From an uncultured Methanobrevibacter sp. (lineage in GTDB: Archaea; Methanobacteriota; Methanobacteria; Methanobacteriales; Methanobacteriaceae), in the NCBI GenBank assembly GCA_902794475.1, contig CADBHR010000004.1, positions 1 through 34,352 of the forward strand: DNA of 34,352 nucleotides. The letters are read 5' to 3'. The position numbers and the translations under genes were made by a program. Each line of letters starts with the position of its first letter. The stretch's first letter is position 1. Positions 1 through 34,352 of the stretch are shown piece by piece. The notes under the pieces are model-generated. The model did not search any database. It was not told the origin of the DNA and was given only the letters and a program-made list of their open reading frames with translations.

Positions 1-459
1 TTGATGGAAAACCTGTTTCTGGAAAAACAGTTACTTTCATTGTTAATGGAAAAAAATCAACTGCAACAACCGATAATAATGGTTATGCATCAGTTAAAAT
101 TAACTTGCCTCCAAAAGCAAAGGCATATGCAGTATCTGCTACTTGTTTTGGAGTAAAGAAAACAAATAAGGTAACTGTCAAAAGCATTGTAGCTGCTAAA
201 AATATGAATGTTAAAAAATCAGCAAAAACAGTTAAGATCAAAGTAACTTTGAAAAAAGTAAATAACAAATACCTTAAAGGTAAAAAGGTTAGCTTAAAAT
301 TAAATGGCAAGACTTATAATGCCAAAACCAACAAAAAGTGTTGCAACATTCACAATCAAAAAGAATGATATTAAAAAACTTAAAGTCGGAAAAAAATACA
401 CCTACAAGGTTACTTATGGAAAAGATGTGGTGAACAAAAAAATCACAATAAAAAAATAA
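1..459 (+). pseudogene. Frameshifted 3' end of an adhesin-like surface protein gene (5' end outside window)
   Basis: The reading frame open from base 3 encodes a Big_1-like Ig module (DGKPVSGKTVTFIVNG onward) followed by a lysine-rich tail module (AAKNMNVKKSAKTVKIKV...). It matches, almost residue for residue, the C-terminus of the intact gene that follows (residues about 1730-1884 there). At about 333-340 the frame breaks: the paralogue reads KTNKKGVATF, whereas here the frame runs into nine unrelated residues and a TGA at 366-368. Switching to the next frame at about 340 restores VATFTIKK through VNKKITIKK and a TAA at 457-459. The break sits in a short A-run followed by G and is best explained by a net 2-base loss relative to the paralogue. 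No terminator separates it from the next gene. It could be a real mutation, a slippage-prone phase switch or a sequencing/assembly error. Confidence 0.8.
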
Positions 460-462
460 TCT

Positions 463-470
463 AAGGTGGT
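463..470 (+). promoter_or_regulatory. Ribosome binding site of the 479 gene
   Basis: AAGGTGGT lies 8 bases before the ATG at 479 and is complementary to the anti-SD end typical of methanogen 16S rRNA. It supports this start and lies in the 19-bp gap after the preceding stop codon, which argues for read-through transcription of the tandem genes. Confidence 0.55.
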
Positions 471-478
471 GTTTTTTC

Positions 479-6133: not shown

Positions 6134-6172
6134 GGGTTGTTGTTGAGTTCCGTTTAAATGGAGATAGTAGTT

Positions 6173-9100
6173 ATGGATTTAAAATCATTGTGTTTTGTTA
6201 TCCTTTTGCTTTTATTATTGGGAGTTAACTGCGTAGATGCAGGTGAGGTTGACGATAACATTACTTTAACGCATGAAGATGTGGATTTGGAGTTGTCCGA
6301 TGATTCCTTAAAAAGTGATGTCGTCTCCAGTCTGGATGATTCAGGGGATTGTCCAGAAAGTGATGTAGTTGATGCAGTCAGCAATTTAAATGCTTCTGAT
6401 GAGTCTTTGGAAAGTGAAGTGGATGAAATCATAGTCAGCGATTGGGATGAACTGCAGTATTACTGTTCTTTAACAGATAAGGATTATACGCTCAGATTGA
6501 AGGAAAATACTGTTTTTTATCCTTCTGATTTTGATGATGTAAACAAGCAAATCAAAATCAACAATAACGTTAAAATCATTGGCAGTCAGGGTTCATATAT
6601 TGGTGATGTCGCTCCTATTGAGGGAACTTATGAAGATAATATGGACCGTTATGTCAAATACGCTCTTATTGTTGTTCCTGAAAACAACGGATGCGGCATG
6701 AGTGTTGTAAATCTTACTTTTAAATGGGTTCATACATTAAACACCAATGCCGGATTGGTCATGGATTTGGCAGGTAACCGGGAGTATGAGTTTGATAACT
6801 GTATTTTTGATGGTATTCAGTCCATGGCAGGTTCTGCATCTATTATGCATGTTAGGAAAGGCAAGGCGATTTTGAACAATTGTTCCGTCATCAATTGTAC
6901 AGTTGCCAAAGGGTGCATTAACGTTTACAGCAGGCAATCTGTGATTTTGAGGGATTGCTATTTTGCATATAATTATGGCTATGAGCATTCCACCTGTGTC
7001 ATGAACTGGGGTAAGCTTCTAATTTACAATACTAAATTTTATAAGAATCGTTCTCAGGCTTGGGCAGGGGGCATAACCACTTACGGTGAGGGCAACACAA
7101 CAATATATGATTCCAATTTCACTGATAATGTTGCAGGATGGAACGGTGGAGCATTGTATGTTTATAATATCGTAAATATCTATAATACTGTTTTTGTTGG
7201 AAATAACTGTACCACCAACAATGGTGGCGGTGCTATTGGGGCTTGCCAGTACAGTGGTATTCCGAGATTGTATGTTGACGGCTGTTTGTTTAAGGACAAT
7301 AACAATAACTGCTGGGCTTTGGATGAGCTTTCCACTACCGGTACAGGTCGTGGAGGGGCGATTTCTTTTATGGATGTCGGATCCATTGACATTAGAAATT
7401 CCCTGTTCATTGCCAACAGCGCATCTATTGGTACTGCAATCTGTGCCTGGGAAGCCGGAAGTTACGGATCACCCGATATTTATATCACAAATAACACTTT
7501 CATCAATCATACCCGTGCGGGGGACGTTTTGAATGTTAAGGTGATTGGAACTGCCTGCAAGATTTCAGGAAATCATTATATTGGAAATTCCATTGAATTT
7601 TCCTATCTGAATCTAACCACTGTCAATGTAGGTAACGATAAGGCAACATTGAAGATTACAGCTAAAATGTCACATCCTTCATTTTATGAATCAGATATTT
7701 TGGACAGGACTCTTTATGATGTTTATGTTAACGGCAGGTATGCTAAAACGGTAAATTCAACTGTTTTTGATTTGGAGTTTGGTGATTTGGACATCTGCAG
7801 TGTCTATGTCATTCCGACAATTTCCAATGTCAAGTCTAATGAATTGACATTGACAAGCACACGTGAATATGTTTTCATATCTAAAAGCAATGGGGATGAT
7901 AACAACAATGGAAGTTCAAGGTCAGCACCGGTCAGGTCTATTGGAAAGGCTATTGAACTGGCAAGGACTTGTCAAAACATCATTCTTTTGGATGGGGACT
8001 TTTCTGAAAACATTGTCCTGGACTATGATTTGACCTTGAAAGGTGAAAACGATGCCAAGCTAACTAATTTAACATTATTCAACAATAATGCAGTGTTGAG
8101 TTTGAAGAATCTGGAAATTTCCAATCTCTCCGGCAATCTGATTGTGGGAGGCAATGTTTCCCTTTCCAATTGTATTGTTCAAAATAATCAAAAAGAGGTT
8201 GTTTTCAATGCAAGTAATATTGAAATTTCGAATTCAATTATTTTAGATAATCTGAATGTTGCAGTCTGCGATTACATTAATGTAAAAGATTCTATTTTAC
8301 TGAATAACATAAATCTTGTGGATGCCAAATCCTATGATTTGAACTGCAACTGGTGGGGATCCACTTTAGAAAATTACCAAATCCAACCATATGAAGACAT
8401 TGATGCCTGGTTGGTTTTAAATGCTACAGCCAGCACTCGTGATTTGGAAATCAATCAAGTGGCATCAGTCAGTGTTGCATTTTATCTGTTTAAAAACAGT
8501 ACTTCAACCAAATATAATTTCAGGGATATTGAATTAAGTGTCATGCAGGTAAATGGCAGTTCCGTTAATTCGACCCTGTCCAATTCCAATGTCTACTTCA
8601 TGTTGACTGCATTGGGCGATGGTGAGTTGACTTTCAGTTATGAATCCGTTTCAACTTCCGTCAGGTTTAATTTCATCAAATCCAATCCGGATATTCACAT
8701 TTCAAGTGATAATATCATGTTCGGTGATGATTTAATCGTTAAAGTTAACCTGCCAGATGATTTGTCTGGAAATGTCACTGTCAAAGTCGCCAATGTCACT
8801 CAAACGCAATCTGCTAATGGAAATTTGCTTTTCAACTTCACTGATCTTAAAGCGGATGACTATGTGATAACTGTCGTTTATTCAGGTGATGAAAAGTATT
8901 TGGACAAGATAATCCAATCTCCGGTTAATGTTTCTAAGTATGAATCATTCACTCTTTTAACAATCGGGGAAATTGTAGTCGATGATGATTTGCTTTTAAC
9001 AGTCACAGCACCATCAGACTCTAAAGGCAATGTCACAATAACAGTCAACGATAATACTGTAACTTTACAGTTAAACGATTCCAAGGCAAATTACACCATT

Positions 9101-11542
9101 AAAAATATCAGACGTGGTGATTATAGAATCACTGCTGTTTATAATGGTGATGATAAGTATCTCACAAGCAGGGATTACAGATTCATTGAGGTTGATAATC
9201 TCATTTCTTCCATGAGCGTTCATGTTGAGGATATTGTTTATGGCGGTGCAGTCATTGTTGAAGTCATCCTAAATGATAATGCAACAGGCAATCTAACTGC
9301 AGTAATTGGCAAAATCGCCAATTCAAGCATTGTAAAAGACGGCAGGGCAAATATTACTCTTTTAGGCGTTGAAGCCGGATTTAAAGAAGTACATGTCTTT
9401 TACACTGGTGATGACACTTATTTCAACAGGACTGAATCTGCATCATTTACAATCAGCAAGGCTGATTTGACCTTTGAGATATCATCAGCAGATATCATGA
9501 TTGGCCAGGATGCAGTGATATTCATTAAAGTCCCGGCTAAAACCACAGGCAATTTTACAATTAATGGTGATATAATAGCAATTCCCTTATCCGGTACCAT
9601 AAGCTATATCATCCCTGATTTGGAAATCGGTGACTATGACATCACTGCAGTTTATCAGGGCAATAACTATAATATGGTTTCAAATTCCACTTCATTCAGT
9701 GTTCTGGAATATCCGAAAGACCAATGGCCGAACAGTGGCTTTGATGCAAAAAACACCGGCAAATCGCCATATGCCAGTTCAAGCAATGGGGAAATATTGT
9801 TTACAATACCTGTTAATGAAACTATTGTCGGTGATGTTTTAATCGATAATGAGGGCAATATCTACTTTTCAACAGTTGATGCAGTCTATTCTTTTACAGG
9901 TGAAGGTGTTTTGAGGTGGAATTTCACCAATAGGGATGTTATCGGTAATTTTTCAGGCATTTCCATGAGTCGTGAGGTTGTGGTTGTTCCAAAATCCGGA
10001 GACACATTGTTTTTCATCAATCAGAAAACAGGTGAAAAATACGGTTCTTCCAATTTCTATCAGGGGTCAAGTATTTTTTCACCAATAATGGATGATAAGG
10101 CAAATATCTATATTTCAAGCGAATATCAGGTTACAAGCGGTTCTTATAAACTTGTGATTATTCCGTTTAGGTTGTGGGAGTTTGGTGGAACTCCAACTAT
10201 ACTTGATTTGGGTAAAAACGCTCCTCTAACATCTCCGGTAATCGGGGAGGATATTATTGTTGTCCTGACAGATTCCAGATTGTGGGTTATTGATGCCAAG
10301 ACATTAAAAACCAGATTCATCAAATCAGGTGATTGGGGGGCTGTTCGTCCTGTTGTAAATGAAAATATTGTCTATGCGGTTTTGGGTGATTGTGTTGTTG
10401 CATATTCACTGACCGGATCTCAGTTGTGGAAAACCAAGATAATCGGCGGTGCAGGCAATCAATTATTGTTGGATTGCGAGTTCTTATACGCTACAAATTC
10501 CAGAGGCAACCTTTACAGGTATGATCTTTCAAATGGTAAGGAATATCTGGTTTCCAGTTTAAGCATCACTTCAGGTGTTTTGATTGGTTTAAATGATACT
10601 TTATACTTTGGCTGTGATAATCTGTTCTATGCAATCGATTCAAAAGGTGGTGTATTGTGGAAATCCGATTTGGGATCTAAAATCACAGGAAGTCCTGTCA
10701 TGAGCATGGACGGAACAATATATGTGACAAGCGAGGACAATAAGGTCTTCACATTAGCCCATGATGATTTAAGGGATGTGAATATGGAAGCGGAATTCAA
10801 TGACAATACATTGACAGTTACATTGGACAGTCAGGCTACTGGTCACGTTTCATTTACAGTGAATGGTTTAACCTATAATGAAACAGTAACTAACGGTAAG
10901 TTGACTAAATCAATTCCTAATTTAAATGCTGGCAGTTATAATGTCAATGTTGTCTATTCAGGTGATTTGAGGTTCAACGCTTCAATCAAAATTGTTTCAT
11001 TCACAATCAAGGCGGCCCCTCAGGTAAATGTTCCAGCATCAAGTGGAAATGACGTTACCATTTCACTTCCAAGCGATGCAACTGGAACAGTTACAGTTCA
11101 GGCTAACGGCAAGACATACACCAAGGATTTGGTCAACGGTAAGGCTACAGTTACATTGCCTGACGGCAACTACAATGCTGTCATAACCTATTCCGGTGAT
11201 GATAAGTACGATGGCTTTACAATCACCAAGAGGGTTAGTGTCAAAAAGCCTGTTGTCAAGAAGGCTTCCAAAATCACAGCCAAAAAGAAAACCTTCAAGA
11301 AATCCTTGAAAACCAAAAAGTACACTGTAACCCTGAAGTCAGGCAAAACTCCAATCAAGAAAGTTAAATTGATCATTAAGATTGGCAGGAAAACATTCAA
11401 GGCCACCACAAACGCCAAGGGTAAGGCCACCTTCAAAATCAAGAAGCTTACCAAGAAGGGCAGATACACTGCAAAGGTCACCTTCAAGGGAAACAAGTAC
11501 TACAAGGCCACAACCAAAAAAGTCAAAATAGTTTTGAAATAG
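6173..11542 (+). CDS. Giant secreted adhesin-like protein, paralogue of the 479 gene with a different C-terminal tail
   Basis: 1789 aa from the ATG at 6173. An upstream in-frame ATG at 6158 would add MEIVV, but GGAG at 6160-6163 is well spaced for 6173, and MDLKSL resembles the MN(L/F)K starts of the paralogues. The order is signal peptide (about 1-23), acidic segment, conserved DWDELQYYCSLTDKDYTL block (about 89-106), beta-helix with GGAI turns (to about 555), second helix entry (FISKSNGDDNNNG, about 567) ending at NWWGST, four Ig repeats (about 836-1180), PQQ-like propeller (about 1184-1530), two Ig repeats (to about 1691) and a Lys-rich tail (1695-1789). The N-terminal two thirds align with the upstream paralogue, partly at DNA level. 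The tail instead matches those of the 22736 and 28545 genes. A 39-bp gap without a terminator suggests cotranscription with the 479 gene. Surface adhesion is inferred from the architecture only. Confidence 0.9.
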   Translation: MDLKSLCFVILLLLLLGVNCVDAGEVDDNITLTHEDVDLELSDDSLKSDVVSSLDDSGDCPESDVVDAVSNLNASDESLESEVDEIIVSDWDELQYYCSLTDKDYTLRLKENTVFYPSDFDDVNKQIKINNNVKIIGSQGSYIGDVAPIEGTYEDNMDRYVKYALIVVPENNGCGMSVVNLTFKWVHTLNTNAGLVMDLAGNREYEFDNCIFDGIQSMAGSASIMHVRKGKAILNNCSVINCTVAKGCINVYSRQSVILRDCYFAYNYGYEHSTCVMNWGKLLIYNTKFYKNRSQAWAGGITTYGEGNTTIYDSNFTDNVAGWNGGALYVYNIVNIYNTVFVGNNCTTNNGGGAIGACQYSGIPRLYVDGCLFKDNNNNCWALDELSTTGTGRGGAISFMDVGSIDIRNSLFIANSASIGTAICAWEAGSYGSPDIYITNNTFINHTRAGDVLNVKVIGTACKISGNHYIGNSIEFSYLNLTTVNVGNDKATLKITAKMSHPSFYESDILDRTLYDVYVNGRYAKTVNSTVFDLEFGDLDICSVYVIPTISNVKSNELTLTSTREYVFISKSNGDDNNNGSSRSAPVRSIGKAIELARTCQNIILLDGDFSENIVLDYDLTLKGENDAKLTNLTLFNNNAVLSLKNLEISNLSGNLIVGGNVSLSNCIVQNNQKEVVFNASNIEISNSIILDNLNVAVCDYINVKDSILLNNINLVDAKSYDLNCNWWGSTLENYQIQPYEDIDAWLVLNATASTRDLEINQVASVSVAFYLFKNSTSTKYNFRDIELSVMQVNGSSVNSTLSNSNVYFMLTALGDGELTFSYESVSTSVRFNFIKSNPDIHISSDNIMFGDDLIVKVNLPDDLSGNVTVKVANVTQTQSANGNLLFNFTDLKADDYVITVVYSGDEKYLDKIIQSPVNVSKYESFTLLTIGEIVVDDDLLLTVTAPSDSKGNVTITVNDNTVTLQLNDSKANYTIKNIRRGDYRITAVYNGDDKYLTSRDYRFIEVDNLISSMSVHVEDIVYGGAVIVEVILNDNATGNLTAVIGKIANSSIVKDGRANITLLGVEAGFKEVHVFYTGDDTYFNRTESASFTISKADLTFEISSADIMIGQDAVIFIKVPAKTTGNFTINGDIIAIPLSGTISYIIPDLEIGDYDITAVYQGNNYNMVSNSTSFSVLEYPKDQWPNSGFDAKNTGKSPYASSSNGEILFTIPVNETIVGDVLIDNEGNIYFSTVDAVYSFTGEGVLRWNFTNRDVIGNFSGISMSREVVVVPKSGDTLFFINQKTGEKYGSSNFYQGSSIFSPIMDDKANIYISSEYQVTSGSYKLVIIPFRLWEFGGTPTILDLGKNAPLTSPVIGEDIIVVLTDSRLWVIDAKTLKTRFIKSGDWGAVRPVVNENIVYAVLGDCVVAYSLTGSQLWKTKIIGGAGNQLLLDCEFLYATNSRGNLYRYDLSNGKEYLVSSLSITSGVLIGLNDTLYFGCDNLFYAIDSKGGVLWKSDLGSKITGSPVMSMDGTIYVTSEDNKVFTLAHDDLRDVNMEAEFNDNTLTVTLDSQATGHVSFTVNGLTYNETVTNGKLTKSIPNLNAGSYNVNVVYSGDLRFNASIKIVSFTIKAAPQVNVPASSGNDVTISLPSDATGTVTVQANGKTYTKDLVNGKATVTLPDGNYNAVITYSGDDKYDGFTITKRVSVKKPVVKKASKITAKKKTFKKSLKTKKYTVTLKSGKTPIKKVKLIIKIGRKTFKATTNAKGKATFKIKKLTKKGRYTAKVTFKGNKYYKATTKKVKIVLK

Positions 11543-11576
11543 GGAAATTTTAATTTCTCTATTAATTTATTTTTTT
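11541..11576 (+). terminator. Imperfect hairpin plus T-run after the 6173 gene
   Basis: AGGGAAATT (11541-11549, starting inside the stop codon) can pair with AATTTCTCT (11552-11560) with one mismatch, and a T-run follows near 11568-11576. The counterpart after the 28545 gene is a perfect stem, so this looks like a decayed copy of the same terminator. Confidence 0.55.
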
Positions 11577-11711
11577 CAATCTACATGTCTCACATAAAAT
11601 CATGATGATTTCCCAACATCTTAAACCTATTTTATTACTCATTAATTTTAACACATATTCTCTTCAACCAATCTCATTTTAATAAAACAAATATTTCATA
11701 TTATTGAACTT
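11543..11711 (+). repeat. Intergenic copy of a duplicated downstream region (partner 33969-34135)
   Basis: This non-coding stretch is highly similar to the region after the 28545 gene. Long matched segments include CTACATGTCTCACAT, AAATCATGATGATTTCCCAA, TTAATTTTAACA and ATTCTCTTCAAC. Similarity stops after GAACTT at 11711 (34135 in the partner) and continues upstream into the coding tails, so the duplicated block crosses the stop codon. The perfect small inverted repeat AAATCA-TGA-TGATTT is kept in both copies. Confidence 0.85.
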
Positions 11712-11833
11712 GTTTGCATTGCCATTTGCTCCCTTGATTTAACATATAAAATCATTTTTAAGATATTTTTCATTTTTTTGTTAAGTATAAACAAGGTTCA
11801 TCATTTTTGTTTTTCATCAATTATATTGAAAAG

Positions 11834-11846
11834 TTTTTTATATTTT
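11834..11846 (+). promoter_or_regulatory. Likely TATA box of the 11890 gene
   Basis: TTTTTTATATTTT lies about 50 bases before the ATG at 11890. A start of transcription some 25 bases downstream would leave a leader of about 25-30 bases carrying GAGATGG just before the ATG. The surrounding DNA is very AT-rich, so the exact box is uncertain. Confidence 0.4.
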
Positions 11847-11889
11847 ATTAAATAAACTATAATTTAGAATATTTTAATGAGATGGAAAT

Positions 11890-14800
11890 ATGAATAATTT
11901 CCAAAGAATTTTCATAGTTTTCTTGGCTATAATTTGCTGCATGTCGATTTCACAGGCATGTGCAATGGATGTTGATTGCAATCGCACTTGTGGCAGTTTG
12001 GATGAGGGTGTTGTTTTAAATGATGCTGAAATTGATGTTAATGATTCATTAAACATTAACAATGATTTGATTGCTTCTTCTAATTATGATTCTCCTTCGG
12101 TTGATTATGGTGAAGGTTACTATAATCAGAGTAACTTGACTGTAATGTTAAATGTTAACGGTGCAAGTTCAGTCAGTTATAGTTGGGATAATGTCAGCTG
12201 GTTTGAATCAAACCAATCTGTTTCTTTTGTTTTAAATCAGGGGATTTATGATTTATATTATGCTGGTGATGGGGAAATATGCTGTCAGCATTATGTTGTT
12301 GACTGTGAAACTCCTGTAGTTTCAAGTAACTTTCAATCAGATTTATATTATAATCCTATTCAGGTAAGCTTATCTTCAATAGATAATTTGGATGTTAATC
12401 CAAGAATTTATTATACTGTTGATGGTTCTGATCCGTTAGAGAATGGTATTTTATATCATGGGTTAATTAATATTTCACAGACCACTAGTTTGAAGTTTTA
12501 TGCGGAAGATTTCGGAGGATTGAGAAGTCCAATTGTTCGTTATAATTATATTTTTGCACGTGTGGGGAATATAAACTCTGGAAAGGGTTTTAGAACAATA
12601 CAGGCCGCTATTGATGACAATGACACGGTTAACGGTGATGTCATATATATTGGTCCATATATATTTTATGGACCAATTTACATAACAAAATCATTGTCAT
12701 TAATTGGCAGGGGAAATCCGGTTATCACATTAAAAGACAACTATCCAACTATCAATTATCCTGGAGGTTATTATAATCAGTCTAATTTGACTATTGAATT
12801 AAGCATTCAAGAAGATGAATACCTGTGGTATAGTTGGGACAATATTGATTGGATTCAGTCATTTGATTCTATTAATTTCACGTTGACTATTGGAGTTTAT
12901 GATTTATATTATGAATGCGGAAGCGAAGTAGTTCATCAACATTATGTAATTGATGATGAACCTCCATTAGTATGGACTAATTACTATACAGATTTATATT
13001 CGTCTCCTATTTTGGTAAATTTGTCCAGTTCGGATAATTTAGATAATAATCCTAAAATCTATTATACTGTTGATGGTTCTGATCCATTGGAGAATGGTAT
13101 TTTATATCAGGGGTTAATTAATATTTCACAGACCACTAGTTTGAAGTTTTATGCTGAAGATTTGGGAGGTTTGAGAAGTTCAATCGTTTGTTATAATTAT
13201 ATTTTTGCACGTGTGGGAAATATAAACTCTGGAAAGGGCTTTAGAACAATACAGGCAGCTATTGATGACAATGATACTGTAGATGGTGATGTTATTTATA
13301 TAGGTCCGGGCATATTTTATGGACCAATCTATCTAACAAAATCCGTATCATTAATTGGCAGAGGAAACCCAATCATTACACTAAAAGAGATTTATCCTAC
13401 CATTAATCATCCTGGCGGCTGTTATAATCAGTCTAATTTGACTATTGAATTAAGCATTCAAGAAGATGAATATCTGTGGTATAGTTGGGATAATATTGAT
13501 TGGATTCAGTCATTTGATTCTATTAATTTCACATTGCCTATTGGAGTTTATGATTTATATTATGAATATGGAAGCGAAGTAATGCATCAACATTACGTAA
13601 TTGATAATAAAGCTCCATTAGCGTGGTGTAATTATTATTCAGATTTATATTCCAATCCTATTTTAGTAAACTTATCCTGTTGGGATAATTTAGATAATGA
13701 TACAAAGATTTATTATACAATTGATGGATCAAATCCTCTGACTAATAGTATTTTATATTCAAATTCAATAAATATAACCTCAACAACTTGCCTAAAGTTT
13801 TATGCAGAAGATTTCGCAGGCCTTAAAAGCAATGTCATTACTTGCAATTACATTTTTGATAATGTTGCCAACATCAATTCAGGAAAAGGATTCAATACAA
13901 TACAATCAGCCATTGATGATGTGGATACTCATGATGGAGACACAATAAAAGTAAAAGAAGGATTATATCAAGAACACGTTACCATTAATAAACATTTGAA
14001 CCTGATTGGTTACAATGCAACCCTAAAAGGTTCATCATCCGTTAATCCGGTCATTGGAGTTACAAATGCTGGAAGCAACAGTATTGTATACGGTTTTAAT
14101 ATTGTCAATTCCACTTTTGGCGTTGTCATTTTAAATGCATGCAATGTTTCAATAATGGGTAATACTTTTTTAAATCTTCACAGTTCCATTGAAACAGATG
14201 GGGATGTGAATTCATTAATTGCATACAATACAATTGATTGTGACCATTATATTGGAGGAATGTCCGGTTTCACAATTAGAAAGTCAGATAATTTAACAAT
14301 ATTCAACAATACAATTTCACTAAACTCCAATGATGATTCTGTAGGCATTATCATCACGGATGGCACTTCCGATAATATTTCAATAACCAAAAATAAAATA
14401 TTAAGTAAAAATTCTTTAAAGGGCATTGGTGTGTATGTGACCTGCTCAAATATCTCCATAGAGCATAATACCATATCTAATTTTACTGCTGCTTTAGTTA
14501 TATCCTCATCCAATTCATCAATATATAATAATTGTTTAAATGATAATGGTTATGGATTATTTTTACGTCGTTCCATAAACAATACCTATAAATCAAACAA
14601 TATCTTTAATAATCTTTATGGTGTTTTTTTACATCATGCTCTTGAGTCTCATGATGATTCATTTTATTTGAACCGTTTATGTGATAATTATTATTATGAT
14701 TTCTTCTCACAGGCAACCTGCACTTATGACATTGGCGATAATTGGTGGGGCGATAATACTCCAATGATTTCAACTAACCAGTATGTGCTTGCCAATGTGT

Positions 14801-17082
14801 TTAATGCTACTGGAAATTTAATTATGAATTCATGGATTGTGATGAATCTTTTTTCAGCATCATATACCATTGATGACAATAGTTTTGTTCAAAGAGCACA
14901 ATTCTATCTGGACATGACCTGCAATAACATAGGTGGGGATTTATCATATGAGGGTTATCTTCCGGATGGTTTGGAGGCATTGATTTACTGCTTTAATAAT
15001 GATGCAAATTACAAATATAATGTTAGTTACTTAAAACAGGGAAAAGCCTTTGTTGATTTTGAGTTAAGTGATTTATTCTGCAATTGGGAAAACATATATG
15101 TTGTTTCACATTTGGATTATGGAAACGTTACCCGCACATTCAATAAAAAAGCCACAATCGACATTACTTTATTTTCATCAGCCGAAGATGTTGATACTGA
15201 ATGGTTTGTAAACTACACCACTTCCATTGATTTTACTGATAATATTTATTGGATTACTGTTAGCTGGTCTGAAACCACACTATACTCAGGCACAATCAAT
15301 CTGATTGTCAACGGAGAAATCATCCAATCATTTAACATCACCAATCTCTTTTATCAGACTTATAAGAATAATTATAGTAGCAATGTTTTTGAAGCCATTA
15401 AGTTTTTAAATAATGTTTTTGCAAGTATGAAAGAGGGAGTATGGCAACCTAATGGATATTATGATAGTTTTGCGGAGTATGCAGGCATTGACCCTGCAGA
15501 TGATGAACTGGTTTATTCCACTTTCCTGAATTATCTTCAATTAGCATATAATTTAACTGACGATGAATTAAATTTTGTTCACACCCATAAAATGCTTTTT
15601 ATTGACATGATTGAGACACACATTGACTATCATGGTGATATTACACCTGACATCAATTTTGAATATGGTGGATGTAATGTTTTGTTGTCACCTCCGTCTG
15701 GTTATGTAGACCGTATAAGTAATATTTATTATACTGACATTGAGGATGAGAATAATGAAAGCATTGGATATGAAGGTATGCGCAGTTTTGCAATAGCTAA
15801 AAGCAATGTGACAGATGATGATTTAAGGTACTGGTTGAATCAAAAGGAATATTATGCTCCTGGTTTGATGAAAGCTGCTTATGGTACTTTTTTAACTCCT
15901 TTGCTTGTTATTTATGAAAATGATCGTGTGGCTGATGATGCGGCTGAAAAATTTAATGTGACTTGGAGTCGTATCAGTCCAGTTTGTGTTTCACTATGCA
16001 ATGACTATAATTGCTTGTATATTACAGGAGAGTCTGATCATCTTATGGGTCGTGAAGCCATAGGAAACAGTAGTAGTGTTTGGAAGTTTAACTTTGCAAC
16101 CAGTTTTAGCTTCAGTCTAGTGGAGCAGTTGGTTGGAAATAATGTCTGGAATACTACTGTGATTGGAAGTGTTACTTTAGGTTTGCTTGAAAGTTATCTG
16201 AATAATGAAACTTTAGAGATAATTACCGGCAGTGGTTATACAGTCATTAAGCGTGAAGGCGATAATGGTACTTTGTTGATTTTAGAGGATGAAACAGGCA
16301 TTGTACACGATTACTTTAGTTTTTATGGTTTATTGGGAACAATGCCATGTTACCATGATGATGTTAGTGATGATACTTGGGGTTATGGGGATAGTATTTT
16401 AGATAAATTAAGTGAGGAGTATAAAGATTTAAAGAATATTTTTAGTATCAGTATTTTGTCTTCAGTGTTTGTTGAAGGAGGAGCCGTGGTTTTAGAAGGG
16501 GTAACTGGTCTTTCATTAGGAGCTGCTGCACTCATTGCCATTCCATTATTTATTATTCTTTGCCCTGATGAGGCAAATGAACTTTGGAAAGAATTATGTT
16601 ATTTAGTAAATCCAAACTATAAGGATTATCCGAATATTACAATTTATGAAGGAATTGATTATAATACTCAAAAATTATTTGATAAACCTCCTGTAATTTT
16701 AGTATTGAATGGCCAATCATTAGATGAATATATTATTTCACATTATAAATCAAATCCAAATCCTAAAAAAGATAAGCAAACAATTAAAAATTACAATGCT
16801 AAATTAAATCATGATAAAAATATGAATTTACCACTTTATTTCACTGCGGTTGGAGGAGATTCTGATGATTCTGATCCTGGAAATTGGACTAATGTTGGAA
16901 AATATGTTAAAGATATTTTAAATGATTTTAATTCATTAGAAACAACTTCTGAAAAGGTTACATTCTTAAAATCTCATCTTCATGAATTATTAACATTATC
17001 TTTAGCTGTAGAAGCTTCTGAATCGATATTTGTTATTATTTATTCATTAATAATTTGGTTATTAAATCATATGGACGAATAG
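11890..17082 (+). CDS. Giant secreted protein with three 217-residue tandem units, NosD-like beta-helix and unrecognised C-terminal region
   Basis: 1730 aa. The signal peptide is about 1-25 (cleavage after ACA). Residues about 73-717 are three tandem units. Each has an aromatic-rich segment (YNQSNLTIEL, SWDNIDW), a CHB_HEX_C/Fn3-associated-like domain (IYYTVDGSDPLENG, LKFYAED) and a pectin-lyase-like helix entry (GKGFRTIQAAIDDND). The third unit runs into a NosD/CASH-type beta-helix ending at DNWWGDNTP (about 950). The remaining 770 residues are unlike the other proteins here. They lack Ig repeats and a Lys-rich tail, are rich in D, N, Y and aromatic residues, contain a Gly/Ala hydrophobic stretch (about 1527-1560) and end in a short hydrophobic helix (SIFVIIYSLIIWLL) that may anchor or insert in a membrane. 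I do not recognise this region. The last few hundred bases look more AT-biased than the rest of the gene. The downstream TPR gene starts 14 bases after the stop. Confidence 0.88.
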   Translation: MNNFQRIFIVFLAIICCMSISQACAMDVDCNRTCGSLDEGVVLNDAEIDVNDSLNINNDLIASSNYDSPSVDYGEGYYNQSNLTVMLNVNGASSVSYSWDNVSWFESNQSVSFVLNQGIYDLYYAGDGEICCQHYVVDCETPVVSSNFQSDLYYNPIQVSLSSIDNLDVNPRIYYTVDGSDPLENGILYHGLINISQTTSLKFYAEDFGGLRSPIVRYNYIFARVGNINSGKGFRTIQAAIDDNDTVNGDVIYIGPYIFYGPIYITKSLSLIGRGNPVITLKDNYPTINYPGGYYNQSNLTIELSIQEDEYLWYSWDNIDWIQSFDSINFTLTIGVYDLYYECGSEVVHQHYVIDDEPPLVWTNYYTDLYSSPILVNLSSSDNLDNNPKIYYTVDGSDPLENGILYQGLINISQTTSLKFYAEDLGGLRSSIVCYNYIFARVGNINSGKGFRTIQAAIDDNDTVDGDVIYIGPGIFYGPIYLTKSVSLIGRGNPIITLKEIYPTINHPGGCYNQSNLTIELSIQEDEYLWYSWDNIDWIQSFDSINFTLPIGVYDLYYEYGSEVMHQHYVIDNKAPLAWCNYYSDLYSNPILVNLSCWDNLDNDTKIYYTIDGSNPLTNSILYSNSINITSTTCLKFYAEDFAGLKSNVITCNYIFDNVANINSGKGFNTIQSAIDDVDTHDGDTIKVKEGLYQEHVTINKHLNLIGYNATLKGSSSVNPVIGVTNAGSNSIVYGFNIVNSTFGVVILNACNVSIMGNTFLNLHSSIETDGDVNSLIAYNTIDCDHYIGGMSGFTIRKSDNLTIFNNTISLNSNDDSVGIIITDGTSDNISITKNKILSKNSLKGIGVYVTCSNISIEHNTISNFTAALVISSSNSSIYNNCLNDNGYGLFLRRSINNTYKSNNIFNNLYGVFLHHALESHDDSFYLNRLCDNYYYDFFSQATCTYDIGDNWWGDNTPMISTNQYVLANVFNATGNLIMNSWIVMNLFSASYTIDDNSFVQRAQFYLDMTCNNIGGDLSYEGYLPDGLEALIYCFNNDANYKYNVSYLKQGKAFVDFELSDLFCNWENIYVVSHLDYGNVTRTFNKKATIDITLFSSAEDVDTEWFVNYTTSIDFTDNIYWITVSWSETTLYSGTINLIVNGEIIQSFNITNLFYQTYKNNYSSNVFEAIKFLNNVFASMKEGVWQPNGYYDSFAEYAGIDPADDELVYSTFLNYLQLAYNLTDDELNFVHTHKMLFIDMIETHIDYHGDITPDINFEYGGCNVLLSPPSGYVDRISNIYYTDIEDENNESIGYEGMRSFAIAKSNVTDDDLRYWLNQKEYYAPGLMKAAYGTFLTPLLVIYENDRVADDAAEKFNVTWSRISPVCVSLCNDYNCLYITGESDHLMGREAIGNSSSVWKFNFATSFSFSLVEQLVGNNVWNTTVIGSVTLGLLESYLNNETLEIITGSGYTVIKREGDNGTLLILEDETGIVHDYFSFYGLLGTMPCYHDDVSDDTWGYGDSILDKLSEEYKDLKNIFSISILSSVFVEGGAVVLEGVTGLSLGAAALIAIPLFIILCPDEANELWKELCYLVNPNYKDYPNITIYEGIDYNTQKLFDKPPVILVLNGQSLDEYIISHYKSNPNPKKDKQTIKNYNAKLNHDKNMNLPLYFTAVGGDSDDSDPGNWTNVGKYVKDILNDFNSLETTSEKVTFLKSHLHELLTLSLAVEASESIFVIIYSLIIWLLNHMDE
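12106..14040 (+). repeat. Three in-frame tandem units with a 651-bp period
   Basis: The segment beginning TCTAATTTGACTATTGAATT occurs at 12781 and 13432, and the segment GATGGTTCTGATCC at 12421 and 13072. Both pairs are exactly 651 bases (217 codons) apart. Units 2 and 3 are nearly identical over their first part (about 12769-12915 against 13423-13569). Units 1 and 2 are nearly identical over their middle (about 12405-12610 against 13056-13261). The end of unit 3 and the start of unit 1 have diverged. This mosaic suggests recent unequal crossing-over or conversion inside the gene. Confidence 0.9.
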
Positions 17083-17096
17083 GGAAGTTAAATCAA

Positions 17097-17996
17097 ATGT
17101 TTAAAAAACGTATGTCTAATAATTTACTTAAAAAAGCAGAATATTATTCTGATAGGTTTGAAAATGAAAAGGCAATTAATTATCTTGATAAACTTCTAAT
17201 CATTGATGGAAATAATATTGATGGTTGGTTGTTGAAGGGTTTGTGCCATGCATTTCTATTTCAAAAGGAAGAGTCGTTCAGATGCTTTGATAAGGCCTTA
17301 AAAATAGATTCCAATAATTTGAATGTTCATCTCAAAAAAGGGGTGGCTTGTTATCATATGGGGGAATATGAATTGGCAATCGATTCGTTCAATCAGATAA
17401 TAGAACATATTCCGGATGAAACTTTCTCATTGAATAAAATCGGATCATGTTACCTCTATTTGGAAAAGTATGATTTGGCTTTGAGCTATTTCAATAAGGT
17501 TTTGGAGATTGACAGTGAAGATTCTGACGCTTTGCTTAATATGGGATTATATTACAATGATTTGGAAATGTATGATGATGCTTTAATCTACTTGGATAAA
17601 TGTATTGAAATCCAACCGAATGACGGAGCCGCATTATTGCAGATGGCAAACATCTATAAAAACAAACAGGATTATCATAATGCATTGAGATATGTCAATC
17701 AGGCTCTTGGCCAAAATCCTAATGATTTGATGCTTCAATTAACAAAAAATCTGCTATTGTCCAATATTGGTGAATTTGAAGAATCAGTAAAGGGATTTAA
17801 AAGTATTTCACTAGAAGGCATTGATAATTATGGTTTAATAAGCATGTACTATATTTATTATGGCCAAGCTTTGCAGACAATGGGAAAGAATGATGATGCG
17901 TTAGGACTGTATGATGAGTATTTGACTGAATATGATCGGTTTCCTAAAGATGGGATTATTGCTGAAAGGGATAAGGTTTTAGGCCAAATGCATTAA
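17097..17996 (+). CDS. Cytosolic tetratricopeptide-repeat protein
   Basis: 299 aa from the ATG at 17097. AGGGAAG at 17081-17087, overlapping the stop codon of the previous gene, is a suitable ribosome binding site. An in-frame TTG at 17055 would overlap the previous gene and lacks such a site. The protein has about seven to eight consecutive TPR-like helix pairs (for example LKKGVACYHMGEYELAIDSF, LNKIGSCYLYLEKYDLALSY, LLNMGLYYNDLEMYDDALIY). There is no signal peptide and no membrane segment, so it should be cytosolic. TPR domains act as protein-protein scaffolds. The tight spacing to the 11890 gene suggests translational coupling, and a hairpin terminator follows. The partner is unknown; regulation, chaperoning or protection linked to the large upstream protein is possible but only inferred. 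Confidence 0.88.
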   Translation: MFKKRMSNNLLKKAEYYSDRFENEKAINYLDKLLIIDGNNIDGWLLKGLCHAFLFQKEESFRCFDKALKIDSNNLNVHLKKGVACYHMGEYELAIDSFNQIIEHIPDETFSLNKIGSCYLYLEKYDLALSYFNKVLEIDSEDSDALLNMGLYYNDLEMYDDALIYLDKCIEIQPNDGAALLQMANIYKNKQDYHNALRYVNQALGQNPNDLMLQLTKNLLLSNIGEFEESVKGFKSISLEGIDNYGLISMYYIYYGQALQTMGKNDDALGLYDEYLTEYDRFPKDGIIAERDKVLGQMH

Positions 17997-18007
17997 GATT
18001 TTAATTG

Positions 18008-18040
18008 GCAAGTATAACTTGCAGTTGTTATTTTATTTTT
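18008..18040 (+). terminator. Hairpin terminator after the TPR gene
   Basis: GCAAGT (18008-18013) and ACTTGC (18017-18022) form a perfect 6-bp stem with an ATA loop, followed by a T-rich run to 18040. It ends the 11890-17097 transcription unit. Confidence 0.6.
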
Positions 18041-18195
18041 AGAATAATATTGATTTCACTATATAATGTTGTATTTATTGTTTAAAATTGATTTTGCCTT
18101 ATTTTTAACTTCAAATTAAAAAATAATTAATTTTAAATACTTTAAAAATTATAATATTTATTATCTCTGCATGTGATGAAAAGAATTTGATGCAG

Positions 18196-18203
18196 TTATA
18201 TAA
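18196..18203 (+). promoter_or_regulatory. Likely TATA box of the 18239 small ORF
   Basis: TTATATAA sits about 43 bases before the ATG at 18239. A transcription start near 18226 would give a very short leader beginning around GAGGT at 18225-18229. Confidence 0.4.
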
Positions 18204-18238
18204 TCAAGATTTTTTTTCTAAAAAGAGGTTGTAATGAA

Positions 18239-18397
18239 ATGGAATGCGCTTCAACAAAAGCTTATGGATTGAATATTAATGATTTTTTAAGAGAGGAATT
18301 TCTTGACAAGCTTGGATGCGAGTTTGGAGATAAGGATGTTGATGTTGTTACATTACAGATTGCTCTTTCAGCTGACATTGCAAGGAATACGCATTAA
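18239..18397 (+). CDS. Small hypothetical protein, 52 aa
   Basis: The ORF begins MECASTKAYGLNINDF and ends ALSADIARNTH. GAGGT at 18225-18229 is spaced 9 bases from the ATG at 18239; the nearer ATG at 18234 is in another frame that closes after 12 codons. The composition is mildly acidic and helix-friendly (LREEFLDKLG, DVDVVTLQIALSADIA), with two cysteines and no signal peptide or membrane helix. I do not recognise the family. It sits immediately before the operator-like repeats of the ATPase gene, so it could be a small regulator, or a decayed fragment of a longer protein. That a clean frame, a ribosome binding site and a TATA box coincide favours a real gene. Confidence 0.45.
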   Translation: MECASTKAYGLNINDFLREEFLDKLGCEFGDKDVDVVTLQIALSADIARNTH

Positions 18398-18410
18398 ATG
18401 TGTCATTTGC

Positions 18411-18562
18411 CGATTTGATGGAACATGTCTAATCAAATAGTTATGAATAAAATTTTCGATTTGATAGAACATGTTCGATTCAATCGAACAGTTATTATTC
18501 AATAATTTTAAATATCATGTTTTATAAAATAGAATATGTTCGATATTAAGGAACATGTCCAA
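18411..18562 (+). promoter_or_regulatory. Cluster of three GAACATGT operator-like repeats upstream of the ATPase gene
   Basis: Three related boxes occur: CGATTTGATGGAACATGTCT (18411-18430), CGATTTGATAGAACATGTTC (18457-18476) and CGATATTAAGGAACATGTCC (18541-18560). The middle box contains the palindrome GAACATGTTC and runs into a perfect 9-bp inverted repeat TGTTCGATT-C-AATCGAACA (18472-18490). The first box is flanked by ATTTGAT/ATCAAAT arms (18413-18419, 18432-18438). The third follows a TATA-like element (18521-18530) and would overlap the transcription start. This arrangement is typical of repressor binding sites. The cognate protein is not known. Confidence 0.6.
18521..18530 (+). promoter_or_regulatory. 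Likely TATA box of the ATPase gene
   Basis: TTTATAAAAT matches the archaeal TATA consensus and lies between the second and third operator-like repeats, 62 bases before the ATG at 18592. A second AT-rich candidate (ATTATATG) at 18571-18578 is too close to the ATG. Confidence 0.45.
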
Positions 18563-18591
18563 TTAAAAAAATTATATGGGGTTGTTTAAAA

Positions 18592-19779
18592 ATGAAGATA
18601 ATGCCGGTTTCAATGCCGAAGGATATAGACAAATACTTTTTCAACAGGGTGAAGGATATCAACATGATAAATACTCAGCTGTCAACGGTCCGATTAGATA
18701 TTCCCCCTCAACTGTTGATTACAGGATATCGTGGTGTGGGCAAGACATTTCTTCTTAAAAAGGTATTGAATGACCAAAGCGAGGACATACTGACCTCATT
18801 CATTGACATATCCGAAATTGTCGGAAGGCAAAAGGGAAACCTCACCGAGGAGAAGGTGCTTAAGGAAATCTTGAATTCCATAAACGAAACAATGTCTAAA
18901 GACAAGAAATCATACAAAAAATGGATTGATAAGATAACCGGACATGTCAAAAGACTGCAATTGAAAAATTATGATTTTCCGGGAGATGCGAATATAATGG
19001 ACATACCGATTCCAGTAATCCATGACAATTATGACAAGCTTTCCAAATTTGTAATGGAGCTTCCCCAAAAAATCGTTGATGAGTCAAAAGACATAAAAGG
19101 ATATATAATAGTAATCGATGAGTTCCAACTATTAAAAAACGTTAAAAAACCTGATGCATTCTTTTGGCTAATCAGAAGCTTTGTTCAAAAGCAGTTCAAT
19201 GTAGGTTATGTCTTCACAGGTTCCGTTTCAAAAACTTCAGATATAATCAACATGATCAACGGTCAGGAAGGAGCATTCGGAGGAAGATTGATACAGATAA
19301 ATATCGAGCCGTTCACAGCTGACGAGACAAGAAGATACATCGAGGAAAAATCAAATAACTTAAAATTCACAAATGAGGGTTTCGAAAGATTTTACGCATG
19401 CACACGAGGAATCCCTCTGTATATAAATAGTCTCTCATCAGTTCTGCCTAACAACACAATATGTGATGAGGAAATCATCAAACAAACTCTCAAGTTTAAC
19501 ATTGACCAGGTCGCTATGATGTGGATTTATGTTTGGGGGAGGTTAAGCGAGGGAGAAAAGGATTTCATAATATATCTTCTGGAGCATGAAGGCTCAAATA
19601 GAGTTGATTTGGATAATGAGCTGGGTTATGCGAAATCCAGCATAACAAGATTCATAGATTCACTTTCCAATCAGGGAATAATCGAATTCAATCGTGAAAG
19701 GAAATTTGTCCTTGCAGACAAGATGCTTGAAAGATGGTTGAAAACCAAGTATGAAACCAATGGTTTCTATCCTTTATAA
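18592..19779 (+). CDS. Archaeal AAA-type ATPase (ATPase_2-like) with C-terminal winged-helix-like region
   Basis: 395 aa. Walker A GYRGVGKT is at 45-52 and Walker B YIIVIDEF at about 171-178. A sensor-like VFTGSVSK follows near 207 and RGIPLYIN near 272. The C-terminal part (about 320-395) looks like a winged helix (LDNELGYAKSSITRFIDSLSNQGIIEF). This layout fits the archaeal ATPase_2 group (PF01637, STAND/MNS-like ATPases). Members are widespread and often expanded in methanogens, and their function is mostly unknown. The start at 18592 is the first in-frame ATG. MPVSMPK at 18601 is an alternative, and neither has a strong ribosome binding site. Operator-like repeats lie directly upstream, so autoregulation through the C-terminal domain is possible but inferred. 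It has no signal peptide and is expected to be cytosolic. Confidence 0.88.
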   Translation: MKIMPVSMPKDIDKYFFNRVKDINMINTQLSTVRLDIPPQLLITGYRGVGKTFLLKKVLNDQSEDILTSFIDISEIVGRQKGNLTEEKVLKEILNSINETMSKDKKSYKKWIDKITGHVKRLQLKNYDFPGDANIMDIPIPVIHDNYDKLSKFVMELPQKIVDESKDIKGYIIVIDEFQLLKNVKKPDAFFWLIRSFVQKQFNVGYVFTGSVSKTSDIINMINGQEGAFGGRLIQINIEPFTADETRRYIEEKSNNLKFTNEGFERFYACTRGIPLYINSLSSVLPNNTICDEEIIKQTLKFNIDQVAMMWIYVWGRLSEGEKDFIIYLLEHEGSNRVDLDNELGYAKSSITRFIDSLSNQGIIEFNRERKFVLADKMLERWLKTKYETNGFYPL

Positions 19780-19977
19780 CTTAACTGATTTTCATTATTT
19801 ATTTTTTCAATCTATATTTGATTAGATATGAGGGGTTTTCTAAAGATGAAAAAAGTGAACTGCTGATTTTAAAGTTAGTTTAACATATGTTTTTACTAAA
19901 TCATTAGCTTAAATAACAAAACACTAAATCTTATTAAGCATTAAAAAGATAAATAATATTTGGAGGAATGAATTAAA

Positions 19978-22694: not shown

Positions 22695-22728
22695 GAGAGC
22701 ATTTATATAAAAATTCTCTCTCTTTTTT
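22695..22728 (+). terminator. Weak hairpin with T-run after the 21108 gene
   Basis: GAGAG (22695-22699) can pair with CTCTC (22716-22720), followed by six Ts (22723-22728). The loop of this element is the TATA box of the next gene, so termination and initiation signals are superimposed. Confidence 0.5.
22702..22709 (+). promoter_or_regulatory. TATA box of the 22736 gene
   Basis: TTTATATA is a textbook archaeal TATA box. Its centre is about 30 bases before the ATG at 22736, which places the expected transcription start within a few bases of the start codon. Confidence 0.6.
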
Positions 22729-22735
22729 GATTTTT

Positions 22736-28544: not shown

Positions 28545-31500
28545 ATGAATTTCAAAACTAAATCTTTCATTTTGATATTGTTATTGCTGCTTGTGGGAGT
28601 TGGTTTCGTATCTGCTAGTGAAATTGATGATATAAATGTCACCTCACAAGAGCTATCTGCAATTGACGATAATCAAAATGAGTTAAATCCAGTTAATTTA
28701 GAAGATATCCAAGAAGAAGCAGATATTCAAAATTCTATTCTTAAATCAACTGATTCGGAGGAATCCTTAAAGGGCAGTGAATCTGATGTGATTGTTGTGA
28801 ATAACTGGGATGAATTACAGTATTATTGTTCTCTTAAGGATGATGATTATGCCTTGAAGCTAAAAGAGAATACAAGTTTTTATCCCACCAATCCCGATGA
28901 TGCTAATTATCAGATAAAAGTTTATAATAAGGTAAAAATTATTGGAAGCGAAGGTTCATATATCGGATACAATTCATCTAATGCACCTGCAATTAAGTAT
29001 GCTGCCATTATTGTTCCAGATGGTGCTAAAGCAAGTATTAATATGGAAAATGTTGAATTTAAATGGATTCGAACAAGTTATTCTCCAGACGGTGTTTTTC
29101 TTCAGATGGGTGGTAAGAGAAATAATGTTTTTAAAAATTGTCGATTTAGTTATATAACTACTACTAAAGGCCATTCTGGCATTATCTATCTAAAAAAAGG
29201 CACTGCTACATTAGATAATTGCTCATTTATTAATTGTACAACTGATTATGGTGTCGTTAGTGTTTATGATCCAAATAGTGTCAAGACTACAGACATGGTT
29301 GTTCGCAACTGTTATTTTGAAGGAAATTACGCCCGAACAGAACCAGGATGCATCAATAATTGCGGTAAACTGACAGTTTACAATACTACCTTTGTTAAAA
29401 ACAGGTCTTTTTGGTGGGCAGGAGCAATACATACACATAATTATGGTAACACTACAATTTATGATTCCAACTTTACAGACAATGTGGCTGGATGGAATGG
29501 TGGAGCATTATACACCTACAGTTACCTTCAAATCTATAATACTGTTTTCAGCGGAAATAACTGTACTACAAATAGTGGTGGGGGAGCTATAGGTGCATGT
29601 GCATTCCAGTCTAATCCTCACATTTATATTGAAAACTGTTTATTTGAAAAAAATACTAATAATTGTTGGACTGCTGATGAACTTAGTAACGATGCCGGTT
29701 ATGGTGGCGCAATTTCAATGATGGATGAAGGATCCATTGTTGTTTTAAACACTACTTTTATTTCTAATGCTGCAGCTTATGGCTGTGCTATTGCTGCTCA
29801 TGCTGCAGGAGAATATGGTTCTCCTAATGTGATTATTGCCAATAATTCATTTATTACACATACACAATCTGAAACTTTACTTGTTAGTGTCACAGGTTCT
29901 ACTGCAATTATTGAAGGCAATTATTTTTATGGAAATTATGTCAGATTTAAAGAATTAACTCTTAAAGAAATTAGTTCAGGTAAAGATTATGCAACATTGC
30001 AGGTAGATGTCAGATTAGCTAATCCTCAGTATTACGACTCTGATATATTAAACAGAATTGAATATGATGTTTATGTTGAGGGAGAATATGTTAAAACTGT
30101 TGACCGTAATGTTTTCACTGTGGATTTTGACGGATTTACAATGGGTGAGGTTTATGTGATTCCAACCATTTCCAACAGCAAATCTAATGTAGCAACAATT
30201 GCATCTGTCGGCAGTTATATCTATGTTTCAAAAAGCATTGGAAATGACAGCAATAACGGAACTTTAAGAGGTTATCCGGTTAAAACCATCAAAAGGGCAT
30301 TGGAACTTGTAGATGAGGATTATAGTATTGTTATTCTTGATGGTATTTATGATGAGGAAAATTTCCAGATTAATAAAAATCTAACAATAATCGGAACTGC
30401 CGATGCAACATTAACCAATAATACATCATTCACAGTCAATGCCAATAATTTCACTTTAAAAAATATTAAAGTATGTAATTCAATACCTGATACATTTGTA
30501 AAACAAAGTAAAGGTAATTTAGTCATTAACAATTGTATTTTTGACAACAATCAGGGTTCCAAGCTAATTGATGCAGATAATGTCAATATTGTAAAATCAG
30601 TTTTTACCAACAATAATGTTATAGTCTACAATAATGCTTTTGTAAGTATTAAGAACTCCATATTGTTAAACAATACTAAAATCATTGATAAAAATACTGA
30701 CAATGTTAATTTAAATTATAATTGGTGGGGAAACACCCTGAATAACGTGTCCAGACCTACTGCAGATTTCAATATAAATAACTGGTTAGTTTTAAATGCA
30801 ACCAGCAGTGTTAATGTTTTGGAGTATGGCAAATCGAGTGTTGTGCAGTTTAGCTGTTATCTGGTTGAAGGCAATTCTATCAGCAAATATAATGATTTGG
30901 TTAAGTTTAATCTGGAACTCAATGCTTTAAACGGTACTGTCAATAAGAATCTGGTGAATTATAATTCCAATGTTATCTATACCCAGACTGCCAGCGGCAC
31001 AGGTGTTTTAACTGCAAAATATAATGACATTTCATTCAATCTCTATTTTGATTTTGTTAAATTAACTCCTAATTTGGTTATTAAAGCTTCAGATATTATG
31101 TATGGTCAAAGTTTGGAAGTTACTATACTTGGTCCTAGCGATATTGCCCAAAGTAAAGGTTTTTATAAAGTTAGTGTTGGCGGAAAGTCAATAACTAAAA
31201 GAACTGAGTATAATTCATTTACTTTTGATGGTTTAAGTGCAGGAAATTATGAAATCACTCTTGAATTCACCGGCAATGAAAAATATGCTGGTAAAACAGT
31301 GACTTCCAAAGTCAATATAAACAAATATGCCACTACAACAAAAATCACTACAAGTGCTGTTGAAGTTGGAAATGACGTAACACTTACCATTACAACTTCC
31401 CAGAATACCGCAGGCACTGTCACATTAACTGTCAATAACATTACAGAAACTTTGACTTTAACTAATAATCAGGCCATATACACTATCAATAATATTGGCC

Positions 31501-33968: not shown

Positions 33969-34135
33969 GGAAATTTTAATTTCCCTTTTATTTATTTTTT
34001 TAATCTACATGTCTCACATCAAATCATGATGATTTCCCAACATCTTAAGCCTATTTCATTTCTCATTAATTTTAACATATATTCTCTTCAACATATCCTA
34101 TTTTAATAAATGAATTCTCCCATATTATGGAACTT
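33700..34135 (+). repeat. Right copy of a duplicated block covering an adhesin tail and its downstream region (partner about 11270-11711)
   Basis: From about 33745 to the stop codon the DNA differs from 11320-11542 at only about a dozen positions by eye. The similarity continues through the terminator and 167 bases of intergenic DNA, then stops after GAACTT at 34135. Codons in this block use more C and G at third positions than most of the window. Confidence 0.85.
33967..34000 (+). terminator. Hairpin terminator after the 28545 gene
   Basis: AGGGAAATT (33967-33975) and AATTTCCCT (33978-33986) form a perfect 9-bp stem starting in the stop codon, followed by a T-rich tail. Confidence 0.65.
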
Positions 34136-34188
34136 ATTTTTCATCCAAATATTCCTTTAATCAGTTAATATTCAAGTTATTCATAAAA

Positions 34189-34252: not shown

Positions 34253-34262
34253 AGGAGGTGAT
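34253..34262 (+). promoter_or_regulatory. Perfect ribosome binding site lacking a standard start codon at normal distance
   Basis: AGGAGGTGAT is a full-length SD match. At the expected distance (34267, 8 bases after GGAGG) the frame has ATC instead of ATG. The GTG at 34258-34260 lies inside the SD sequence itself. Confidence 0.75.
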
Positions 34263-34352
34263 AGGAATCAGATATAAATTAATCTTCGGATTAATTTTGT
34301 TAATGTTTACATTGTCTTTTGTTCATGCAAGCGATACTAATGCCAGTGACAT
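34258..34352 (+). CDS. 5' end of a secreted protein, probably another adhesin-like protein (cut by window end)
   Basis: The frame reads IRYKLIFGLILLMFTLSFVH followed by ASDTNASD, a clear signal peptide with likely cleavage after VHA and a start of mature sequence like the neighbours. The frame is open to the window end. The only standard start that keeps the whole signal peptide is GTG at 34258, which overlaps the SD. A TGA at 34240-34242 blocks the upstream frame. ATG at 34303 would remove the signal peptide's basic N-terminus. By analogy with its neighbours, the original start was probably an ATG at 34267, now ATC. The gene may use GTG or a rare start, or be silent. Its domain content lies outside the window. 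Confidence 0.6.
   Translation, partial: MIGIRYKLIFGLILLMFTLSFVHASDTNASD

What the first reader, a model, noticed from the sequence alone, without database searches (positions are those of the whole stretch)
11270..11711. Near-identical tail-plus-intergenic block shared with 33700-34135
The final ~230 coding bases differ at only about a dozen sites, and the similarity runs past the stop codon through the terminator and ~170 bp of non-coding DNA. The 22736 gene encodes a very similar tail with different codons, so protein selection alone does not explain the DNA identity. This points to recent segmental duplication or gene conversion over 22 kb, and gives direct repeats that could delete or amplify the genes between them.
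Basis: seen in the sequence. Interest (0 to 1): 0.6.

Follow-up and report, generated by a model that had tools for sequence, protein, structure and literature searches.

The report
Shared adhesin gene tails, recombined
Two large surface-adhesin genes of a gut methane-producing archaeon share an almost identical 0.4-kb end that runs past the stop codon; it looks like a tract copied by homologous recombination at the edge of DNA exchanged with other Methanobrevibacter species, a process well known in bacteria but little described in archaeal adhesins.

Summary
Two adhesin-like genes, A2 (6158-11542) and A3 (28545-33968), are saturated at synonymous sites along their length. Their last 78 codons are 96% identical (dS 0.15), and the identity continues for about 170 non-coding bases (88%). 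A syntenic A3 ortholog in another species (G004) has an ordinary 77%-identical tail and lacks the non-coding part, so protein or RNA constraint does not explain it. Gene conversion (ectopic homologous recombination) is the best reading; segmental duplication is not supported.

Copy A is the left end of a segment (11257-19947) mostly 98-100% identical to species G081, whose core genes are only about 74-82% identical. In G081 the same tail ends the A3 ortholog. Copies A and G081 differ at 17 sites within 11359-11669 and at 1 site in the other 808 bp (p = 7e-9); the three copies show alternating site patterns, so the tract was overwritten at least twice. A decayed third copy lies on contig C68. 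Strains and reads were not available and the key genomes are drafts; a chimeric assembly is unlikely but not excluded. Known kind (compare 3' ends of H. pylori babA/babB, homA/homB); moderate interest.

The parts
6158..11542 (+). Gene A2: adhesin-like protein (beta-helix N-part, BamB/PQQ-like part, Big_3_5 Ig repeats, lysine-rich Ig-like tail)
   Evidence: ORF, Pfam; body up to about 10637 is 93% identical to sister species G019
11309..11542 (+). Tract copy A, coding part: last 78 codons (type-Y tail, lysine-rich Ig/Big-like domain)
   Evidence: 96% DNA identity, dS 0.15 to copy B; Big_3_5 E=1e-6 and Big_1 E=0.002, both below the curated cut-off
11538..11563 (+). Terminator-like hairpin over the stop codon followed by a T-rich stretch
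   Evidence: Inverted repeat; fold -9.4 kcal/mol, z -2.9
11543..11715 (+). Tract copy A, non-coding part
   Evidence: 88% to 33969-34139 and 82% to contig C68; 97% to G081:C5, and no full match in the other 65 genus genomes
11257..19947 (+). Segment nearly identical to species G081: A2 tail, non-coding tract, Q, T, ATPase
   Evidence: Sharp ends at 11257 and 19947; mostly 98-100% identity outside the Q repeats, against core genes at 74-82%
11890..17082 (+). Gene Q: large secreted repeat protein (CHB_HEX_C_1, NosD-like repeats)
   Evidence: G081 ortholog lacks one 651-base repeat unit
17055..17996 (+). Gene T: TPR protein, 97-99% identical copies in G081 and G082
18592..19779 (+). Archaeal ATPase_2 (PF01637) gene
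28545..33968 (+). Gene A3: adhesin-like paralog of A2; orthologs in G081 and G004 at about 75-77%
33735..33968 (+). Tract copy B, coding part (last 78 codons)
33969..34139 (+). Tract copy B, non-coding part; absent from the syntenic A3-P spacer in G004
34256..34352 (+). Start of gene P, cut by the contig end; this stretch is identical to gene P of G081:C16

Best explanation
The block is a homologous-recombination (gene conversion) tract of about 0.4 kb that covers the 3' end of adhesin-like genes: the last 78 codons of the cell-surface tail, the terminator hairpin and about 170 non-coding bases. The tail type is common to many adhesin genes and supplies homology, so strand exchange by the ordinary recombination machinery can copy one 3' end onto another gene, or join foreign DNA to a resident gene there. 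Here this happened on top of transfer between species. The A2 tail (copy A) is the left end of an 8.7-kb segment shared almost identically with species G081, where the same tail belongs to the A3 ortholog. Copy B is a tract-length replacement at the end of the resident A3. At least one of the copies was overwritten again later. Shown: tract limits, dS contrast, the unconverted ortholog in G004, the near-identity with G081, the mosaic site pattern. Inferred: the recombination machinery, the direction of copying, and the transfer route.
For: dS 0.15 in the last 78 codons against about 0.8 to saturation elsewhere in the same pair. Identity runs through the stop codon into 170 non-coding bases and stops sharply. 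G004 has the same gene order with A3 followed by P, but its tail is 77% identical to both copies and its spacer lacks the block. Full-length non-coding matches occur only in this genome (3) and G081 (1) among 67 genus genomes, with 12 candidates scored per genome. Copy A continues into 11257-19947 at mostly 98-100% to G081, core genes 74-82%. A versus G081: 17 of 18 mismatches lie in 11340-11670, Fisher p = 7e-9; B versus G081 is 93-100% per 30 bases over 33761-34090 and about 57-87% outside. Alternating site patterns A/B/G081: 7 runs against 17.8 expected, 3 of 100,000 shuffles.
Against: No strain-level genomes or reads: the direction and number of events are unresolved. Only one pair of about 30 tails in this genome shows this, so it is not a general homogenisation. 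The alleles special to copy A in 11359-11669 have no clear source among the other copies. All genomes involved are draft assemblies.
Confidence: 0.72

Rival explanations
1. Recent segmental duplication: a larger unit ending in this block was duplicated, and the rest diverged or was lost.
For: A1, A2 and A3 are true paralogs over their full length, and the gene upstream of A3 shares its tail type with A1.
Against: Synonymous sites are saturated right up to the tract; downstream genes Q and P are unrelated; G004 shows A3-P without the block.
Confidence: 0.04
2. Nucleotide-level constraint: the tail codons, terminator and spacer are conserved because of a regulatory RNA or codon requirement.
For: A terminator-like hairpin is present; tail codons are unusually G/C-ending in both genes (GC3 0.58-0.62 against 0.30-0.38 for the whole genes).
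Against: Ortholog tail in G004 77%, 22727 tail 71%; block absent from nearly all of the genus; no Rfam match.
Confidence: 0.03
3. Integration of a circular or mobile element at the 3' end of A2 (single crossover), with the blocks as the resulting direct repeats around 22 kb.
For: In sister G019 the A2 ortholog is followed directly by a P-like gene, without the 22 kb; G081 carries a recombinase-like gene (by eye) between its second A3-like gene and P.
Against: Repeats differ by 4-12%; A3 followed by P is also found in G004, so that adjacency is older than the block; the G019 A2 ends in a different tail type; no integrase gene among the window ORFs examined.
Confidence: 0.1
4. Assembly artefact: the contig is a chimera of two species joined in the repeated tail.
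For: 210-contig, 85%-complete genome; 11257-19947 and the end of the contig are nearly identical to G081 while the rest is not.
Against: Identity to G081 is interrupted by a 17-mismatch patch, most of whose alleles are not those of B, G081 or C68, so two switches would be needed; reading frame intact; copies A and B themselves are distinct; a third decayed copy exists on C68.
Confidence: 0.11

Closest known systems
Concerted evolution of the 3' segments of H. pylori babA/babB and homA/homB (PMC2795765, which cites Pride and Blaser 2002)
   Same: Surface adhesin paralogs with divergent 5' or middle parts and 3' segments homogenised by gene conversion; the conserved 3' part is presumed structural.
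   Different: Here the organism is an archaeon, the tract runs through the terminator into the spacer, the same tract is shared with another species, and only one pair of about 30 tails is affected.
Adhesin-like proteins of Methanobrevibacter with the conserved C-terminal M1-C domain (PMC2812497)
   Same: Large secreted proteins with a conserved C-terminal Big_1-like domain thought to attach to the cell wall.
   Different: That paper lists the genes and domain; exchange of the tails by recombination was not found described there or in the papers searched.
Intermolecular gene conversion in polyploid archaea such as Haloferax volcanii (PMC11276520, abstract only)
   Same: Gene conversion works in archaea.
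   Different: That is equalisation of copies of the same locus; here the copies sit at different genes.

Membership tests
3'-end concerted evolution of adhesin paralogs (babA/babB kind) | Divergent bodies with a nearly identical 3' segment at synonymous sites | tested here: met
3'-end concerted evolution of adhesin paralogs (babA/babB kind) | Paralogous ends within a genome more alike than orthologous ends between genomes | tested here: inconclusive
   Met against the G004 ortholog (96% vs 77%), not against G081 (B to G081 97%)
3'-end concerted evolution of adhesin paralogs (babA/babB kind) | Conversion seen to occur among strains or in culture | not testable with these tools
   No strains of the species or reads available
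Methanobrevibacter adhesin-like proteins | Large protein with signal-like N-terminus and Ig/Big repeats | tested here: met
   (signal judged by eye)
M1-C type C-terminal domain | Conserved C-terminal region with weak Big_1 similarity | tested here: inconclusive
   Big_1 E=0.002, below the curated cut-off; no alignment to the published M1-C consensus
Integrative element with target-site repeats | Recombinase gene and near-exact repeats at both ends of the insert | tested here: not met
   Repeats differ by 4-12%; no recombinase seen among the window ORFs

The most novel reading that the evidence does not exclude
The conserved tail-plus-terminator tract acts as a preferred crossover point through which whole cassettes of adhesin genes are swapped between loci and between Methanobrevibacter species, so that bodies, tails and downstream genes are reshuffled as modules.
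Probability: 0.22. Interest if true: 0.62.

Novelty: new member of a known kind. Interest (0 to 1): 0.4.

Why it matters
Adhesin-like proteins are an abundant and variable class of surface proteins of gut methanogens and have been considered as vaccine targets against ruminant methane (PMC2812497). If their 3' ends serve as points of exchange within and between species, their diversity arises by recombination as well as by mutation, and gene trees or vaccine designs based on the conserved tail could be misled. It also gives a simple testable example of ectopic gene conversion in an archaeal surface-protein family.

Tried and rejected
Searched the block in IMG/VR (no exact match), in Rfam and for tRNAs (none). 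Looked for general homogenisation of all tails in the genome: not found. Looked at a similar pair in G010: 87% over 452 bases, but its body is also 76% similar, less striking. Tested whether copy A's private alleles come from another tail of the genome: no clear source. Tried a baseline from contig C1, a glycan cluster with no matches; used contigs C3 and C6 instead. One genome search failed on query length and one family search on frame; both were repeated correctly.

Full report
What is there. The window is a whole contig (C4) of a draft Methanobrevibacter-type genome: 2.27 Mb in 210 contigs, 85% complete. Named relatives from the public scan are uncultured Methanobrevibacter. It carries several large adhesin-like genes. 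Labels used here: A1 479-6133, A2 6158-11542, Q 11890-17082, T 17055-17996, an ATPase gene 18592-19779, S 21108-22694, B-gene 22727-25408, C-gene 25507-28518, A3 28545-33968, and P, which starts near the contig end. A1, A2 and A3 are full-length paralogs. Their tails come in two types: X (A1, C-gene) and Y (A2, B-gene, A3).

Check of the observation. The repeat search gives 11309-11575 against 33735-34001 at 95% and 11571-11715 against 33995-34139 at 88%; the alignment is. Along A2 versus A3, dS is about 0.8 to saturation in every 234-base window except the last, where it is 0.15.

Constraint does not explain it. The B-gene tail is 71% identical to either copy with saturated dS. Species G004 has the syntenic order S, B-gene, C-gene, A3, P. 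Its A3 tail is 77% identical to both copies, the same as its body (77.5%). Its spacer between A3 and P has a different hairpin-like sequence and none of the block. A genus-wide search of 67 genomes (12 candidates scored per genome) finds the non-coding part full-length only in this genome (copies A, B and contig C68) and once in G081.

Relation to other species. The A1-A2 region is 93% identical to species G019 up to about 10637, while core genes are 71-79% identical. In G019 the A2 ortholog continues with an X-type tail and a P-like gene. From 11257 to 19947 the window matches G081 at mostly 98-100%, with dips in the repeats of Q; core genes are 74-82%. In G081 the tail and block end the A3 ortholog, followed by Q and T. 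The ATPase lies on another G081 contig next to a further T copy, then a second, 69-72% similar S-B-C-A3 set, a recombinase-like gene and P. The start of P in the window is identical to G081 over about 95 bases. The window is thus a mosaic of segments with different nearest relatives, and copies A and B lie at two of the joints.

Mosaic within the tract. Copy A and the G081 copy differ at 17 sites in 11340-11670 and at 1 site in the other 808 compared bases (Fisher p = 7e-9). In the same tract copy B is 93-100% identical per 30 bases to the G081 copy, falling to about 57-87% on both sides. Site patterns switch between 'A differs' and 'B differs' in 7 runs against 17.8 expected, 3 of 100,000 shuffles. 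The tract therefore has a history of its own, and at least two replacements are needed: one to put it at the end of A3 in this genome, one to make A and G081 differ only there. Coding-part identities are A-B 96%, B-G081 97%, A-G081 95%.

Third copy. Contig C68 holds the last 30 coding bases and the non-coding part, followed within about 20 bases by remnants of 18293-18530 and 19542-19818. It looks like a decayed copy of the same segment with internal deletions, next to a RhuM-family gene that is 92% identical to one in the G081 cluster.

Mechanism. The most likely reading is homologous recombination between conserved 3' ends of adhesin-like genes, partly as gene conversion and partly as the entry joint of foreign DNA. 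Tract limits, dS contrast, distribution and mosaicism are shown. The recombination enzymes, the direction and the vehicle of transfer are inferred. A mobile element with the repeats as attachment sites is possible but less likely, because the repeats differ by 4-12% and A3-P adjacency without the block exists in G004.

Comparison with the known. Gene conversion of the 3' segments of adhesin paralogs is known from H. pylori babA/babB and homA/homB (PMC2795765). The conserved C-terminal domain of methanogen adhesin-like proteins is known (PMC2812497). No paper on gene conversion of Methanobrevibacter adhesin-like proteins was found in the library searched, which holds open-licence papers only. 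I file this as a new member of a known kind.

Limits. All assemblies are drafts, only one genome per species is held, and no reads were available. Naming of the organism rests on relatives.

Noticed in passing
17084-17978 (gene T): The TPR gene is 97-99% identical in G081 (two copies) and G082 although core genes differ by about 20-25%; it seems to move on its own between species.
   Followed up: partly
1856-2089 and 7529-7762: A1 and A2 have a patch with dS 0.39 inside otherwise strongly diverged genes, perhaps an older conversion tract.
   Followed up: no
12382-13983 (gene Q): Internal repeat with 651-base spacing; the G081 ortholog is 217 aa (651 bases) shorter, consistent with one unit fewer.
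   Followed up: partly
1-10637: 93% identical to species G019 (97-99% at about 5500-7500) although core genes are 71-79%, so A1-A2 also look recently exchanged between species.
   Followed up: partly
L061 (contig C68) 863-2765: Decayed copy of the tail block joined to ATPase-region remnants, beside a RhuM-family gene also present in the G081 adhesin cluster.
   Followed up: partly
L177 11993-13075: In G081 a gene that looks by eye like a tyrosine recombinase lies between an adhesin gene and P; Pfam gave no integrase match.
   Followed up: no
L173 12274-13479: Transposase-like gene (weak IS66 match) in the G081 cluster just beyond the point where identity to the window ends (19947).
   Followed up: no
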